Positions 5,613 through 16,525 of a DNA stretch of 17,047 nt are shown here, piece by piece. Source of the stretch: Smithella sp. ME-1 (GTDB lineage: Bacteria > Desulfobacterota > Syntrophia > Syntrophales > Smithellaceae). Position 1 is the stretch's first letter. Every line of letters begins with the position of its first letter. Location of the stretch: assembly GCA_000495415.1 (NCBI GenBank), contig AWGX01000681.1, forward strand, positions 1 through 17,047, written 5' to 3'. The notes below the pieces were generated by a model. That model was not told the DNA's origin. It saw only the letters and a list, made by a program, of their open reading frames with translations, and did no database searches. Made by a program: the position numbers and the translations under genes.

Positions 5613-5640
5613 ATTATAAATATTTCTATTGACAAAACAA
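5613..5640 (-). promoter_or_regulatory. Predicted sigma-70 promoter for the CDF transporter
   Basis: On the minus strand, TTGTTT (5640-5635) and a consensus TATAAT (5618-5613) are separated by 16 bases. Transcription would start near 5606, giving a leader of about 33 bases to the GTG start. Its -35 box directly adjoins the -35 box of the plus-strand promoter. Confidence 0.55.
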
Positions 5641-5657
5641 TGGAGTATAATTATATG
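5629..5657 (+). promoter_or_regulatory. Predicted sigma-70 promoter of the cimA leader
   Basis: A consensus -35 box TTGACA (5629-5634) is followed after 17 bases by TATATG (5652-5657). An overlapping TATAAT lies at 5646-5651 but at too short a spacing from the -35 box. Transcription should begin near 5664, about 22 bases before the leader-peptide ATG and about 180 bases before cimA. Confidence 0.7.
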
Positions 5658-5685
5658 TAAGCAAACTGACACTTAGAGCGTTATT

Positions 5686-5763
5686 ATGAAAAAAGACATT
5701 TGCTCCATAATAATTATCAACATTATAATTAGCTTCTGCATAGGAGGCCGGGGCGCGGTATAG
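5686..5763 (+). CDS. Isoleucine-rich leader peptide of cimA (attenuator)
   Basis: A 25-codon ORF, ATG at 5686 to TAG at 5763, beginning Met-Lys-Lys-Asp-Ile. Nine of its 25 residues are isoleucine: positions 5, 8-11, 13-15 and 19. All three codons are used (four ATT, four ATA, one ATC), so both isoleucine tRNAs would be read. There is no leucine codon, and the only valine is the last residue. A weak AGAG lies seven bases upstream of the ATG. The ORF sits between a good promoter and a strong terminator that abuts the cimA ribosome site. CimA starts the citramalate route to isoleucine, so the repeated amino acid matches the pathway product. The coding end (5747-5758) is also one strand of a predicted antiterminator. 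A small membrane peptide is the alternative reading, but the context strongly favours a leader peptide. Confidence 0.85.
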   Translation: MKKDICSIIIINIIISFCIGGRGAV

Positions 5764-5804
5764 TATTATTTATAAATAAGCAAAATTCAAATCCGCTGCC
5801 AGGC
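5747..5804 (+). promoter_or_regulatory. Predicted antiterminator pairing in the cimA leader
   Basis: GGCGCGG (5752-5758), in the last codons of the leader peptide, can pair with CCGCTGCC (5793-5800), the 5' arm of the terminator, with one bulged U. GCC (5747-5749) can extend this by pairing with GGC (5802-5804) across a small internal loop. The two structures are mutually exclusive. A ribosome stalled on the isoleucine run at 5707-5730 leaves 5747-5758 free; one that reaches the stop at 5761-5763 covers it. I see no obvious protector hairpin upstream. The pairing is drawn by eye and not scored by energy. Confidence 0.65.
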
Positions 5805-5827
5805 AAACCCGGCAGCGGATTTTTTTT
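5791..5827 (+). terminator. Intrinsic terminator (attenuator) just upstream of cimA
   Basis: A perfect ten-base-pair GC-rich stem, ATCCGCTGCC (5791-5800) and GGCAGCGGAT (5811-5820), with a ten-base loop, is followed at once by seven T residues (5821-5827). The AGGAG ribosome site of cimA begins two bases later, so the terminator lies between promoter and gene and must be bypassed for cimA expression. This position is diagnostic of attenuation, not of ending an upstream gene: the upstream neighbour is divergent. Confidence 0.92.
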
Positions 5828-5842
5828 GAAGGAGAAGGGGAA

Positions 5843-7426
5843 ATGAAAAATAAAGTACTGGTTTACGACACAACTTTACGGGATGGTACGCAGGGTGAGC
5901 AGACAAATTTTTCGGCTGAGGAAAAACTGCGCATTGCTCAGCGTCTTGACGATATTCATTTTCACTATATTGAGGGCGGTTGGCCCGGTTCCAATCCCAA
6001 GGATATGCGTTTTTTTGAAATGGCCAAAAGCATTAAGTTCAAAAACTCGCGTCTGACTGCGTTTGGCAGTACGCGCCGCGCTCATACCAAGACGGAATCG
6101 TGTCCGAATCTCAAGGCTTTAATCAAAGCGGGGACCACCGCTTGCGCTATTGTCGGGAAATCATGGGATTTGCACGTCACCGACATTCTGAAAACAGACC
6201 TTGACGAAAATCTGGCGATGATTGCCGATTCCATCGAATATCTGAAATCGCTGGGCAGGGAAGTGCTCTTTGACGCCGAGCACTTTTTCGACGGTTATAA
6301 AAATAATCCGCGTTACACGACCAAAGTGGTGAAAACGGCGCTAGCCGCCGGAGCGGATTTTATTGTTCTTTGCGATACCAACGGCGGCTCTCTGCCTCAT
6401 GAAATCTGTACTATCGTGAAAAGAATATCCGCTCATGTTCCTTTGGAAAAGATGGCAATTCATACACACAATGACGGAGGGCTTGCCGTGGCGAATTCCA
6501 TTGCCGCCGTGCAGAAAGGCGTAGTCATGGTTCAGGGCACGGTCAATGGTTACGGTGAAAGATGCGGAAATGCCGATTTGATTACACTCATTGCCAATTT
6601 GCAATTAAAGCTAGGCAAAAAATGTCTGCCGCCGGAATCAATCAGGCAACTAACCAATTTATCTCATTACGTAAGTGATGTGGCCAATGTGCCACCGCTT
6701 AATTCGCGTCCATTTGTCGGACGCAGCGCCTTTGCACATAAAGGCGGTGTGCATGTCAGCGGCATCGTCAAAAACTCCGTTGCCTATGAGCATATCCAGC
6801 CGGAGCTGGTCGGCAACCACCGGCGCGTTCTGGTTTCCGAACTGGCGGGAAAGAGCAATGTGGAATATAAAGCAAAGGAACTGGGCATCGATATTACTAA
6901 AGATGACGCAATCAGTAAAAAGATAGTACATGAGGTCAAGCTTATGGAAGACCGCGGTTTTCAGTTCGATGCCGCCGACGGCTCGCTTTCTCTGCTGATG
7001 AAGAAAGCTATCGGTGAATTTGTCGAACCGTTTAATCTGGAAACCTTCAGCGTGATTACTTCACGAAGTGAAAATAACCCGTGCCTTTCTCAGGCGACTA
7101 TTAAAATATCGGTTGCCGGTGAGGAGGAATTGACCGCCGCGGAAGGCAATGGTCCGGTAAACGCTTTGGACCAGGCCCTGCGCAAAGCACTGACCAAGTT
7201 TTATCCGCAAATCAAGGAAATGCATCTGGTTGATTTCAAGGTGCGCACGCTGGAAGGTTCGGAAGGCACCGCCGCGGGTGTCCGGGTGCTTGTGGATTCG
7301 ACGGACGGCGAGGAATTCTGGAGTACCATCGGTGTTTCCGAAAATATTATCGAGGCCAGTTGGCAGGCTTTGGTTGACAGTATTGAATACAAATTGAGCA
7401 AGGAGGAAAACCTTAATCTAAAATAA
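5843..7426 (+). CDS. cimA: (R)-citramalate synthase
   Basis: Condenses pyruvate with acetyl-CoA to (R)-citramalate, the first step of threonine-independent isoleucine synthesis; citramalate is then processed by the leucine-pathway isomerase and dehydrogenase to 2-oxobutyrate. The 527-residue length fits the long CimA type. The N-terminal TIM barrel (about 1-285) has the DTTLRDGTQGE signature (9-19), with R13-D14 for catalysis and metal binding, the HTHNDGG motif (207-213) whose histidines bind metal, and GTVNGYGERCGNADL (232-246). A linker region with HKGGVHVSG (299-307) follows. A C-terminal regulatory domain (about 385-520), as in 2-isopropylmalate synthase, suggests feedback inhibition, presumably by isoleucine. 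AGGAG lies eight bases before the ATG. Expression is predicted to be controlled by the leader-peptide attenuator upstream. Homocitrate and 2-isopropylmalate synthases are relatives, but the barrel sequence and length favour CimA. Confidence 0.95.
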   Translation: MKNKVLVYDTTLRDGTQGEQTNFSAEEKLRIAQRLDDIHFHYIEGGWPGSNPKDMRFFEMAKSIKFKNSRLTAFGSTRRAHTKTESCPNLKALIKAGTTACAIVGKSWDLHVTDILKTDLDENLAMIADSIEYLKSLGREVLFDAEHFFDGYKNNPRYTTKVVKTALAAGADFIVLCDTNGGSLPHEICTIVKRISAHVPLEKMAIHTHNDGGLAVANSIAAVQKGVVMVQGTVNGYGERCGNADLITLIANLQLKLGKKCLPPESIRQLTNLSHYVSDVANVPPLNSRPFVGRSAFAHKGGVHVSGIVKNSVAYEHIQPELVGNHRRVLVSELAGKSNVEYKAKELGIDITKDDAISKKIVHEVKLMEDRGFQFDAADGSLSLLMKKAIGEFVEPFNLETFSVITSRSENNPCLSQATIKISVAGEEELTAAEGNGPVNALDQALRKALTKFYPQIKEMHLVDFKVRTLEGSEGTAAGVRVLVDSTDGEEFWSTIGVSENIIEASWQALVDSIEYKLSKEENLNLK

Positions 7427-7529: not shown

Positions 7530-8138
7530 ATGTTGCTATCGATTAACAGTCTGAATCCGCAAATGCGGCTAATAAAAAAAGCCGCGGATGTCCTGCGTGA
7601 GGGAGGAATAGTAATTTATCCGACGGACACGGTTTACGGATTAGGCTGTGATTTATCAAATAAAAAAGGTATTGAAAAAATTTACGAGTTAAAAAGACGA
7701 AACAGAAAACAACCGTTGAGTTTTGTCTGCTCGGATCTAAAACATATTAGTCAGTACGCCAAAGTTACCGACTACGCGTATAAAACAATGAAAAGACTGT
7801 TACCGGGAGCTTATACTTTCATTCTGGAAGCGTCACGTCTGGTGCCGAAAATTATTTTGCCGAAAAGGTCAACGACAGGAATAAGGGTGCCCGACAATCA
7901 GATTTGCCTGACTTTGGTCAAGGAACTGGGTCAGCCGATAATCAGCACCAGTGTGAAAACAGAACAAGGTGAAACATTAGGCGATCCCTCTGTTATTAAA
8001 GAATATTTCGGCAAGACAGTTGACTTAATTATTGATGGTGGTATTATTGTACCGCAACCATCCAGTGTTATCAGCCTTGTGGGCGACAACATAGAAATTA
8101 TAAGAATAGGAAAAGGCGATATAAGCGCCTTTCTATAA
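7530..8138 (+). CDS. YciO/Sua5 (YrdC-domain) family protein
   Basis: A 202-residue YrdC-fold protein. The YrdC/Sua5 family includes L-threonylcarbamoyladenylate synthases, which make the intermediate for the t6A37 tRNA modification. Length and sequence along the whole chain resemble E. coli YciO more than TsaC or the long Sua5. Examples are the N-P-Q-x-R-L-I start (9-15), PTDTVYGLGC (31-40), the P-G-x-Y-T-F-I-L segment near residue 92, and the end with V-D-L-I-I-x-G-G. Whether YciO proteins perform the synthase reaction efficiently in vivo is less certain than for TsaC, so no gene symbol is given. AGGA lies nine bases before the ATG. The gene follows cimA by 103 bases and precedes RNase G by 96 bases on the same strand, a shared interest in RNA metabolism with the latter. 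Confidence 0.88.
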   Translation: MLLSINSLNPQMRLIKKAADVLREGGIVIYPTDTVYGLGCDLSNKKGIEKIYELKRRNRKQPLSFVCSDLKHISQYAKVTDYAYKTMKRLLPGAYTFILEASRLVPKIILPKRSTTGIRVPDNQICLTLVKELGQPIISTSVKTEQGETLGDPSVIKEYFGKTVDLIIDGGIIVPQPSSVISLVGDNIEIIRIGKGDISAFL

Positions 8139-8165
8139 ATACAACAGGTCGCGCGGATATTTGTG

Positions 8166-8188
8166 AATAGACACACAAAAAGTCTATT
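8166..8188 (+). other. Small hairpin in the leader of the RNase G gene
   Basis: A seven-base inverted repeat, AATAGAC (8166-8172) and GTCTATT (8182-8188), with a nine-base A-rich loop lies about 46 bases before the RNase G start codon. No T-run follows, so it is not a terminator. RNase E in enterobacteria controls its own mRNA through its 5' leader, so a role in autoregulation is conceivable, but nothing more specific can be read here. Confidence 0.3.
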
Positions 8189-8234
8189 GCAGCATGGATA
8201 AGATTGAGAATATCGGCGACTAAAAAGGACATTT

Positions 8235-10082
8235 ATGAAACACACGATGCTCGTTAACGCTGTTCATAAAGAACAGATGCGGATGGCTACGGTTAACGAA
8301 AAGGGTATTCTTGTTGATTTCAACATTGAAATGCCGACAAGGGAACCAATTACCGGTAATATTTATAAAGGTAAGGTTCTTAAAGTTGAGCGCGGCCTTC
8401 AGGCAGCCTTTGTTGATTACGGAGGCTCTAAAGATGGTTTTCTTCCAATTAAAGATGTCGGTTCTGAATATTTAACCCAACAAGAAAATGGCCAGGATCA
8501 TGGCAAGCCTGTTCTGAAGGTCGGACAGGAAATAATAGTTCAGGCCGTTAGAGAAGCGATTGGCAATAAAGGAGCCCTCCTTACCTCTTATGTTTCTCTT
8601 CCCGGCAGATATATGGTTCTGCTTCCCAACAAACCCGGCAGCGGCATTTCCCGCAAAGTTGAAGATGAAGAAGACCGGCAGAAAATAAAAAATATAATGA
8701 AGCAAATTAAAATCCCTGAGAATATGGGATTTATTGTCAGAACGGCCGGTTTCAACCGGACAAAGCAGGAAATTGCCCGTGACTATCAACATCTCGTGCG
8801 TCTTTGGAAAGAAATCAATAAAAAAGCAAACAGTCTTAATAAAACTTCCATGATTTATCAGGAAACAGATTTCGGCGTACGCAGTTTACGCGATTACCTT
8901 ACTTCGGAAATTGATGAAATTCTGGTTGATGATCCGGAGACTTTTCGCAAAATGCGGGCTTATTTGAGAGCTATTTCTCCACGTTATATAAAAATACTCA
9001 AACATTACAAAGAAAAAACACCTCTTTTTGACAATTATAAATTAGAAGATCAAATACGCGTTATCTATCAGGAACGTGTAGAGCTTAAATCCGGAGGACA
9101 CATTGTTATAAATCCGACAGAAGCTATGATTACGATTGATGTTAATTCCGGACGCGCTTCCAATAAGAAAAATATTGAAGAGACAGCTTTTAAAACAAAC
9201 ATTGAAGCCAGCGAGGAAATTGCCAGACAATTGCGGTTACGCGACTTAGGTGGATTGATTGTCATCGATTTTATTGACATGATGGATAAAAAACACATTG
9301 CCGAAGTGGAGAAATCTTTCAAAACAGCTCTTAGTATAGATAAAGCAAGAATTCAGCTCTCGAGAATTTCCAAATTCGGGATACTCGAATTATCACGGCA
9401 AAAGAAACAGTCGACAATTCAGGAAATCAGTTACACGAAATGTCCTTTCTGTAAGGGCAGCGGTTTGCGTCAATCTCTGGAAGCTGCGGCGCTGGGAGCT
9501 TTTCGTAAGATTGAATCAGAGGCCGTTAAGGGAATTTGTTCTGAATTGAAAATAATCTTACCGCATGAAATCGCCGATTATATTCTCAACCGGAAAAGAA
9601 GCGAATTGTTGGATTTAGAGTTGGAGTTCGATGTTGCTTTGAATATTGCCGGCAGTGCGGAAATAGCCTGGGATAAGGTAACCATACAGCAAATAGCCAA
9701 AGAGCATGTTGATGATCAGGACCATACGGAAGAAATAAAGGACGCGGAAGCTCAAGAGGCTTCGAGATCAATTGTTGAGGAAAAAGTCTCAGTAAACGGA
9801 GAAAAGCGCACTAAAAAGAAAAACCGCCGGAGACCACGGCACAAGAAGAGAAAACCGATGGAATCGTCAACGGAAACTTCTCCGGCAATGAATGGTGCAT
9901 CTGCGATTGTTCAGGAAGTTCTAGGGGAAGATAATTTGCCGGCAGCGGAAAATACTCCGGCGAAATCCAGTCCCTTTATTATTGAACCGGCTAAGCCTGA
10001 AAAAGATATTGTTAATACAAGACCTGATGAGCAGAAAAATAATATTAGTGAACCAGACGCAAACAGAAAAGATGAAGAGTAG
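8235..10082 (+). CDS. rng: Ribonuclease G/E with basic C-terminal extension
   Basis: A single-strand endoribonuclease for rRNA and tRNA maturation and mRNA decay. The 615 residues hold an S1 RNA-binding domain (about 38-125), a 5'-sensor and RNase H-like region (about 125-280), and the DNase I-like catalytic region with D302 in ITIDVNSGR and D345 in IVIDFIDMMD. These are equivalent to D303 and D346 of E. coli RNase E. The zinc-link cysteines are C403 and C406 in KCPFCKGSG. E. coli RNase G ends soon after the core, but here about 125 further low-complexity residues follow. They include a strongly basic patch (about 524-541), then an acidic, proline-containing tail, like a short RNase E scaffold. 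AAGGA precedes the ATG by five bases; a second ATG at codon 5 is possible. It is convergent with proC, with only 15 bases between the stops. Confidence 0.93.
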   Translation: MKHTMLVNAVHKEQMRMATVNEKGILVDFNIEMPTREPITGNIYKGKVLKVERGLQAAFVDYGGSKDGFLPIKDVGSEYLTQQENGQDHGKPVLKVGQEIIVQAVREAIGNKGALLTSYVSLPGRYMVLLPNKPGSGISRKVEDEEDRQKIKNIMKQIKIPENMGFIVRTAGFNRTKQEIARDYQHLVRLWKEINKKANSLNKTSMIYQETDFGVRSLRDYLTSEIDEILVDDPETFRKMRAYLRAISPRYIKILKHYKEKTPLFDNYKLEDQIRVIYQERVELKSGGHIVINPTEAMITIDVNSGRASNKKNIEETAFKTNIEASEEIARQLRLRDLGGLIVIDFIDMMDKKHIAEVEKSFKTALSIDKARIQLSRISKFGILELSRQKKQSTIQEISYTKCPFCKGSGLRQSLEAAALGAFRKIESEAVKGICSELKIILPHEIADYILNRKRSELLDLELEFDVALNIAGSAEIAWDKVTIQQIAKEHVDDQDHTEEIKDAEAQEASRSIVEEKVSVNGEKRTKKKNRRRPRHKKRKPMESSTETSPAMNGASAIVQEVLGEDNLPAAENTPAKSSPFIIEPAKPEKDIVNTRPDEQKNNISEPDANRKDEE

Positions 10083-16136: not shown

Positions 16137-16222
16137 GGAGGGATGGCCGAGTGGTCGATGGCGGCGGTCTTGAAAACCGTTGACCGAAAGGTTCGCGGGT
16201 TCGAATCCTGCTCCCTCCGCCA
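16137..16222 (+). tRNA. tRNA-Ser (anticodon TGA)
   Basis: A class II tRNA of 86 bases including an encoded CCA. The acceptor GGAGGGA (16137-16143) pairs with TCCCTCC (16212-16218), with discriminator G. The anticodon loop CTTGAAA places TGA at 16171-16173. A long variable arm with a GACC/GGTT stem follows, then a T arm with the TTCGAAT loop. It reads UCA and other UCN codons by wobble. Confidence 0.97.
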
Positions 16223-16283
16223 GAAAATAATAACAAGCGGTGAAATTTGCCGCTGTGTTCTAAAGATAGATCGATAACAAAGC

Positions 16284-16378
16284 GGAGAGATGGCTGAGTG
16301 GTCGAAAGCGATCGCCTGCTAAGCGATTGTACGCCCTTTAAAGGTGTACCGCGGGTTCAAATCCCGCTCTCTCCGCCA
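16284..16378 (+). tRNA. tRNA-Ser (anticodon GCT)
   Basis: A class II tRNA of 95 bases with encoded CCA. The acceptor GGAGAGA (16284-16290) pairs with TCTCTCC (16368-16374), discriminator G. The anticodon stem ATCGC/GCGAT encloses CTGCTAA, giving GCT at 16318-16320, for AGC and AGU codons. The variable arm is long, as required for SerRS. It follows the first serine tRNA by 61 bases. Confidence 0.97.
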
Positions 16379-16448
16379 TTTTTTGAAAAATTGTGTTGAT
16401 TTAATTAATGTGCTATTGAAGCCACCGCAAGTTATATCAGCATATTCA

Positions 16449-16525
16449 GCGCCCATGGCTCAGCTGGATAGAGCGTCGGACTACGAATCCGGATGTCGGA
16501 GGTTCGAATCCTCCTGGGCGCGCCA
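16449..16525 (+). tRNA. tRNA-Arg (anticodon ACG)
   Basis: A 77-base tRNA with encoded CCA. The acceptor GCGCCCA (16449-16455) pairs with TGGGCGC (16515-16521), discriminator G. The anticodon loop CTACGAA gives ACG at 16483-16485; the first position is expected to be deaminated to inosine so that CGU, CGC and CGA are read. It lies 70 bases after the second serine tRNA and just before a terminator. Confidence 0.97.

What the first reader, a model, noticed from the sequence alone, without database searches (positions are those of the whole stretch)
5664..5842. Isoleucine-specific leader-peptide attenuator controlling citramalate synthase
Seen: a consensus promoter; a 25-codon ORF with nine isoleucine codons (eight within codons 5-15); a ten-base-pair GC-rich terminator with seven T's whose run ends two bases before the cimA ribosome site; and then cimA. 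Known: leader peptides rich in the end-product amino acid control trp, his, leu and ilv operons of enterobacteria. Inference: this organism uses the same logic on the threonine-independent isoleucine route. The leader has no leucine codon and only a terminal valine codon, unlike the multivalent ilv leaders, which suits cimA because it feeds isoleucine alone. I am not aware of a described leader-peptide attenuator dedicated to cimA.
Basis: partly seen in the sequence, partly recalled or inferred. Interest (0 to 1): 0.88.

Follow-up and report, generated by a model that had tools for sequence, protein, structure and literature searches.

The report
Isoleucine-codon attenuator before citramalate synthase gene
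In a Smithella-like bacterium a tiny isoleucine-rich leader peptide and a pair of competing RNA hairpins sit before the gene that opens an unusual route to isoleucine, very probably letting that gene be read only when isoleucine runs short; the device is of a known type, but it is kept across this bacterial group and I found no earlier description of it at this gene.

Summary
In detail: a promoter, a 25-codon ORF with nine Ile codons, a terminator with a T-run, then cimA (TIGR00977, 740.9 bits). Leader and terminator precede cimA in 44 of 44 scorable regions of the window's family (window included) and in most of 77 regions of its order. Terminator and antiterminator covary across clades, and Ile codons change mostly at the third base. 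A model of the element also finds a sister attenuator before ilvB in the order; its leaders add valine (Val in 33 of 44 leaders, against 19 of 112 at cimA). In the window's family ilvB has a separate Val/Leu-rich leader (20 of 20 read). Control codons thus follow the operon's product. This is classical ribosome-mediated attenuation, a new member of a known kind. The target cimA and the deep conservation in this phylum were not described in the open-licence papers I could search. Response to isoleucine is untested. Group names are inferred: most genomes came without names.

The parts
5629..5657 (+). promoter: -35 TTGACA (5629-5634), 17-bp spacer, -10 TATATG (5652-5657)
   Evidence: best-scoring site has an exact TTGACA in 117 of 132 loci (window included; no shuffled control was run); not listed by the scan
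5686..5763 (+). leader peptide ORF, 25 codons, nine Ile
   Evidence: the nine gaps inside the ORF part of the 44-row family alignment are all of 3 bases
5698..5730 (+). control region: eight Ile codons (codons 5, 8-11, 13-15)
5732..5748 (+). 1:2 (pause/protector) hairpin GCUUCU/GGAGGC; region 1 = 5732-5737, just after the Ile run
   Evidence: single folds; weak in alignment counts
5747..5758 (+). region 2: antiterminator 5' arm, inside the last leader codons
5793..5804 (+). region 3: terminator 5' arm, alternative partner of region 2
5789..5827 (+). intrinsic terminator (regions 3:4, 5789-5822) plus T-run 5820-5827
5829..5834 (+). AAGGAG, likely ribosome-binding site of cimA
5843..7426 (+). 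cimA, citramalate synthase, the controlled gene
   Evidence: TIGR00977, 740.9 bits, cut-off 450

Best explanation
A classical ribosome-mediated transcription attenuator tuned to isoleucine. RNA polymerase starts near 5664 and a ribosome translates the leader behind it. With charged tRNA-Ile plentiful the ribosome reaches the stop codon at 5761 and covers region 2, so region 3 pairs with region 4 and transcription stops at the T-run before cimA. When charged tRNA-Ile is scarce the ribosome stalls on the Ile run, covers region 1 (5732-5737) and leaves region 2 free to pair with region 3 as soon as that is made; the terminator does not form in time and cimA is transcribed. Shown here: the parts, their mutually exclusive pairings, their conservation and covariation, and the match of control codons to operon content. 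Inferred: start of transcription, leader translation, stalling, termination, and the response to isoleucine.
For: Ile run in 43 of 44 regions of the family and 52 of 77 of the rest of the order, against 0.34% and 0.19% of shuffles; the one family miss, L090, has its leader beyond the distance limit. None of 11 other residues reaches 6 in 12 codons in the family regions. Ile columns: 140 third-base changes against 38 and 46 at bases 1 and 2; of 126 third-base changes from A, C or T, 14 go to G, against 147 of 481 in the spacer. Terminator paired in 99.1% of cells, 5 pairs changed on both sides; antiterminator 91.8%, 4 pairs; covariation score beyond 500 of 500 shuffles for both and above every slid version (39 rows chosen by me for diversity). 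Antiterminator duplex -19.2 against -10.5 kcal/mol shuffled, P <= 0.05 in 125 of 134 loci. Region 2 with region 3 of the other clade is about 5 kcal/mol weaker; the cognate pair beats the mean swap in 41 of 44 and 60 of 67. Masked-ribosome folds of the window give the antiterminator for a stall at codons 13 or 15, and only a -2.3 local pairing followed by the terminator for a ribosome at the stop. Val occurs in the control part of 33 of 44 ilvB leaders and 19 of 112 cimA leaders.
Against: No RNA or expression evidence. In the window clade the antiterminator has mismatches and is weaker than the terminator, which is the minimum-energy state in every masked fold once fully made, so the switch must be kinetic. 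The number of antiterminator pairs changed on both sides (4) is reached by 45 of 500 shuffles, and one slid version also has 4. The 1:2 hairpin is weak on the alignment (59% of cells) and modest on single folds (z below -1 in 16 of 44, 43 of 67 and 3 of 16). The leader has no strong Shine-Dalgarno sequence. 25 of 77 other regions of the order fall below the Ile threshold, some with only a GII core, and 9 of 134 loci show no significant antiterminator. Leader ORFs were picked by Ile content, and open frames by construction, which inflates Ile fractions and frame conservation there. Related genomes are not independent.
Confidence: 0.9

Rival explanations
1. The leader ORF encodes a small hydrophobic membrane peptide with its own function, and the terminator merely ends its transcript.
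For: The peptide is hydrophobic and conserved in the family and much of the order.
Against: Residues are Ile at cimA but Val/Leu-rich at ilvB of the same family rather than freely exchanged hydrophobics; the conserved C-terminal codons are explained by pairing with the terminator arm; in several relatives (such as L113, L153, L155, L213) the stop lies before region 2 and the pairing is kept outside the ORF.
Confidence: 0.03
2. A riboswitch, T-box or protein-bound attenuator in which the ORF is incidental.
For: A conserved terminator and antiterminator exist, as in those systems.
Against: No Rfam family reaches its gathering score in this region; the spacer between ORF and terminator is variable; Ile codons show a coding pattern of change.
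Confidence: 0.03
3. A multivalent branched-chain sensor rather than an isoleucine sensor.
For: Homologous leaders at ilvB carry Val, and cimA leaders of the Desulfobacterales-like set carry a Leu run (at least 6 Leu in 12 codons in 11 of 19 regions). The window leader ends in a Val codon.
Against: In the control part of the 44 family cimA leaders there are 347 Ile, 9 Val and 10 Leu, and the same family has a separate Val/Leu-rich leader at ilvB.
Confidence: 0.04

Closest known systems
ilvGMEDA and ilvBN leader attenuators of enterobacteria (recalled)
   Same: leader peptide with branched-chain control codons, antiterminator and terminator before ilv genes
   Different: those are multivalent and precede ilv operons; here Ile alone before cimA, in another phylum, with ilvB under its own leader
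Trp_leader RF00513 and Leu_leader RF00512 (Rfam)
   Same: order of parts: ORF, alternative hairpins, terminator (order in those families recalled)
   Different: window scores 19.3 and 18.2 bits against gathering 41 and 50; other control codons and target
uORF of the ilvBNC mRNA of Corynebacterium (PMC10272879; search listing and start of abstract only)
   Same: conserved uORF before ilvB said to regulate the operon
   Different: other phylum and operon
T-box regulators of Ile/Leu genes in Firmicutes (recalled)
   Same: sense tRNA charging through transcription termination
   Different: bind uncharged tRNA directly, without a leader peptide; no T-box match here

Membership tests
ribosome-mediated transcription attenuator (trp/his/leu/ilv type) | short leader ORF rich in codons for the end product | tested here: met
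ribosome-mediated transcription attenuator (trp/his/leu/ilv type) | intrinsic terminator between leader ORF and first gene | tested here: met
   (not listed on the + strand by the simple scan)
ribosome-mediated transcription attenuator (trp/his/leu/ilv type) | antiterminator that shares an arm with the terminator and would be masked by a ribosome at the leader stop | tested here: met
ribosome-mediated transcription attenuator (trp/his/leu/ilv type) | 1:2 pause/protector hairpin placed so that a ribosome on the control codons blocks it | tested here: inconclusive
   present in single folds, weak in alignment counts
ribosome-mediated transcription attenuator (trp/his/leu/ilv type) | leader has a promoter and a ribosome-binding site | tested here: inconclusive
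   -35 conserved (no shuffled control); only a weak TAGAG before the leader ATG
ribosome-mediated transcription attenuator (trp/his/leu/ilv type) | read-through rises when the cognate aminoacyl-tRNA is scarce | not testable with these tools
   needs RNA measurements
Rfam Leu_leader RF00512 / Trp_leader RF00513 | score at or above the gathering threshold | tested here: not met
   18.2 of 50 and 19.3 of 41 bits
T-box | match to an Rfam T-box model | tested here: not met
   no match listed (at gathering; up to E = 1)
citramalate synthase CimA | score above the TIGR00977 cut-off | tested here: met
   740.9 against 450 bits

The most novel reading that the evidence does not exclude
This phylum (Desulfobacterota, name inferred) carries one inherited family of branched-chain attenuators whose RNA frame (CCTGATAATGG antiterminator against CCGTTATCAGG terminator arm) is kept while the control codons are re-tuned to the operon that follows: Ile alone at lone cimA, Ile/Val at ilvBNC, Ile/Val/Leu at ilvD-ilvB operons upstream of cimA; in the window's family sensing is split between an Ile device (cimA) and a Val/Leu device (ilvB). 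That would place an old and diverse amino-acid attenuator lineage outside the gammaproteobacteria. Common descent of the elements was not tested with a tree.
Probability: 0.55. Interest if true: 0.65.

Novelty: new member of a known kind. Interest (0 to 1): 0.5.

Why it matters
It gives a mechanism for isoleucine control of the threonine-independent (citramalate) route in syntrophic bacteria that are hard to study genetically. It also shows amino-acid attenuation as a conserved system in a group for which Rfam has no matching model; a 2013 survey worked with His, Leu, Thr and Trp attenuator motifs only and suggested that they may have originated in gammaproteobacteria (PMC3766115, one passage seen). 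The paired cimA and ilvB leaders are a natural experiment on how control codons adapt to operon content.

Tried and rejected
Chance Ile run: rejected by shuffles and conservation. Coding on the reverse strand: the reverse complement of an Ile run is itself Ile/Met-rich and shares the wobble position, so C against G at the third base was used, not density. Known RNA families: none at gathering score. Attenuator confined to cimA: a strict pattern gave 22 matches in 149 genomes, 21 of them just upstream of a cimA match and one (G117) in a genome without a listed cimA match; the covariance model then found ilvB sites too, so this was dropped. Leu run in Desulfobacterales-like cimA leaders as a leucine sensor: left open, because part of the run is one arm of an internal hairpin such as GCAACAGGGAU/AUCCCUGUUGC. 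1:2 hairpin by alignment counting: weak. Elsewhere: no ORF with 6 Ile in 12 codons before cimA in 39 more distant regions of the phylum or in 72 regions from other groups; in many of these the best ORF upstream is the end of a protein with MISTSEIK (ACT domain of aspartate kinase, recalled) so that cimA seems to lie inside an operon.

Literature: searched open-licence PubMed Central papers only; no listed paper was seen to describe a cimA leader or attenuator, judging by titles and abstract starts. each listed one paper holding the terms, which I did not open. PMC2965389, PMC4833913, PMC545781 and PMC3766115 were searched for terms only. Earlier surveys of classical attenuation (one of 2004, recalled; one of 2010, seen only as a reference) were not looked up, so they could hold a mention.

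Full report
Observation. The ORF 5686-5763 encodes MKKDICSIIIINIIISFCIGGRGAV with Ile at codons 5, 8-11, 13-15 and 19. The terminator 5789-5822 has a 12-bp outer stem, a mismatch and two inner pairs, -23.1 kcal/mol. The gene that follows is citramalate synthase. No whole genome is held for the window.

Conservation. I collected 256 regions upstream of cimA; four were duplicates and one (L097, 112 bases) too short, leaving 251. Of the 48 family matches, four partial ones (G009, G020, G031, G039) were not fetched. An ORF with at least 6 Ile in 12 codons occurs in 43 of 44 family regions (window and 43 others), 52 of 77 other regions of the order, 6 of 19 Desulfobacterales-like, 0 of 39 other regions of the phylum and 0 of 72 from other groups; shuffles reach it in 0-0.34%. 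The family miss (L090) has its leader beyond the distance limit. A terminator of -12 kcal/mol or better follows in 44 of 44, 73 of 76 and 17 of 17 regions in which any ORF could be scored; L209 of the order and L006 and L007 of the Desulfobacterales-like set were not in that scan or gave no ORF. The Desulfobacterales-like label rests on the record titles of L005-L007 and on similarity for the rest. The 25 regions of the order below the threshold include rows with only a GII core and rows without a leader; L204 is a second cimA copy in its genome.

Selection on the peptide. In 105 leaders picked for Ile content, the seven Ile-majority columns changed 38, 46 and 140 times at codon positions 1, 2 and 3; of 126 third-base changes from A, C or T, 14 went to G, against 147 of 481 in the spacer (parsimony on a tree of the same DNA). 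In the 44 family rows, none of which was dropped for its Ile content, codons 2, 3, 6, 7 and 8 of the aligned run are Ile in 43 or 44 rows, with all three Ile codons in use at four of the five. The nine gaps inside the ORF part of that alignment are all of 3 bases; eleven leading gaps of 6 or 9 only reflect the choice of start codon; spacer gaps are 1, 2, 4, 5, 6 or 7.

RNA switch. Region 2, in the last leader codons or just after the stop, pairs with the terminator's 5' arm: mean -19.2 against -10.5 kcal/mol for shuffled segments, P <= 0.05 in 125 of 134 loci (100 single-base shuffles each). The nine exceptions are L163, L182, L202, L207, L208, L210, L004, L127 and L129. On a 39-row alignment (rows chosen by me) the terminator is paired in 99.1% of cells with 5 pairs changed on both sides and the antiterminator in 91.8% with 4. 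The covariation scores exceed all 500 shuffles and every slid version, but the count of 4 antiterminator pairs is reached by 45 of 500 shuffles and by one slid version. Related rows can exceed shuffles without structure, so the swap test matters: region 2 with region 3 of the other clade gives -14.5 and -13.7 against -19.2 and -18.8 for cognate pairs, and cognate beats the mean swap in 41 of 44 and 60 of 67. Region 3 differs between lineages (CCGCTGCCAGG, CCGTTATCAGG, CCGCCGCCGG) and regions 2 and 4 change with it. A 1:2 hairpin after the core Ile codons touches region 2 in 42 of 44, 67 of 67 and 14 of 16 single folds, but with z below -1 in only 16, 43 and 3, and alignment counting supports it weakly. 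In the rest of the order it often includes the last core Ile codon (ATTAGGCC with GGCCTGAT). Folds of the window with a masked ribosome (footprint assumed) give the antiterminator for a stall at codons 13 or 15 once region 3 is made (-15.3), and only a -2.3 local pairing for a ribosome at the stop codon. The full terminator is the minimum-energy end state in every case, so the decision must be kinetic.

Regulon. A covariance model of the element (R1, built from 39 of these loci) matches 105 of 120 genomes of the order and 43 of 247 of the phylum at E <= 0.01; the weakest may be chance, the lists are capped, and many second matches are the same terminator on the other strand. From the listed matches I fetched 60 further sites. 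Tested against six query proteins, the first gene recognised downstream is ilvB in 46, ilvD in 6, cimA in 2, an acyl-CoA dehydrogenase in 1 and none in 5. ilvB and ilvD were checked by family on examples (TIGR00118 for L257 and L269, TIGR00110 for L269, above cut-off); the names ilvN and ilvC are recalled from their sequences and were not confirmed. In five fetched loci the leader heads ilvD-ilvB-ilvN-ilvC, 5.2-5.8 kb before cimA in the same direction (L269-L273). In the control part Val occurs in 33 of 44 ilvB leaders and 19 of 112 cimA leaders of the order, family included (Mann-Whitney P = 3.5e-13); the two sets were picked by different residue criteria (Ile for cimA, Ile+Leu+Val for ilvB) and related genomes are not independent, so the P value is too small. 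In the family the only second site I recognised in the listed matches is L256 (not ilvB). Reading upstream of ilvB in 20 of the 48 family genomes with a hit shows another leader in all 20, such as MFLKDLTGGVIPILIKVLVLVVVVLTGSAALYL, picked as the ORF densest in Ile, Leu and Val, with mean 3.0 Ile, 5.9 Val and 5.8 Leu, and a terminator of -14.5 kcal/mol or better in 19 (L316 had none in the stretch scanned). In the one example tried its end also pairs with the terminator arm (-22.9). No shuffled control was run for these ilvB leaders.

Judgement. The sequence-level features that define classical attenuation are met, apart from the 1:2 hairpin and the leader's ribosome site, which are inconclusive; translation, stalling and the response to isoleucine are inferred. 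It is a new member of a known kind. The new points are the target gene, the isoleucine-only tuning, and the depth of conservation with homologues at ilv operons. No description of a cimA attenuator was seen, which cover open-licence papers only.

Noticed in passing
L256 (G012:C29:96000-100100): A second complete Ile leader (MNTITIRHIIIISNIIISVHIGGLVLV) and terminator, 85.7 bits to model R1, stands before an acyl-CoA dehydrogenase and electron-transfer-like genes (nearest NCBIfam acryloyl-CoA reductase, below cut-off) in a genome that also has the cimA leader.
   Followed up: partly
L121, L123-L135, L216, L004, L005 upstream of cimA: Desulfobacterales-like cimA leaders carry an extra internal hairpin after the Ile codons, one arm of which encodes part of a Leu run (such as SLLLLLL); whether the Leu codons also regulate is open.
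   Followed up: partly
L316-L335 upstream of ilvB: Val/Leu-rich leader peptides with GC-rich terminators; at least in L317 a second terminator-like hairpin follows.
   Followed up: partly
G015:C14 (L141), G113:C101 (L204), G133:C269 (L180): Some genomes carry more than one cimA match; the extra G015 copy keeps an Ile leader, the G113 copy (54% identical) has none.
   Followed up: no
window 16137-16522: Three tRNA genes in a row after serS (Rfam tRNA matches).
   Followed up: no
window 7530-10082: cimA is followed on the same strand by an L-threonylcarbamoyladenylate synthase gene and an Rne/Rng family ribonuclease gene, which could share its transcript.
   Followed up: no
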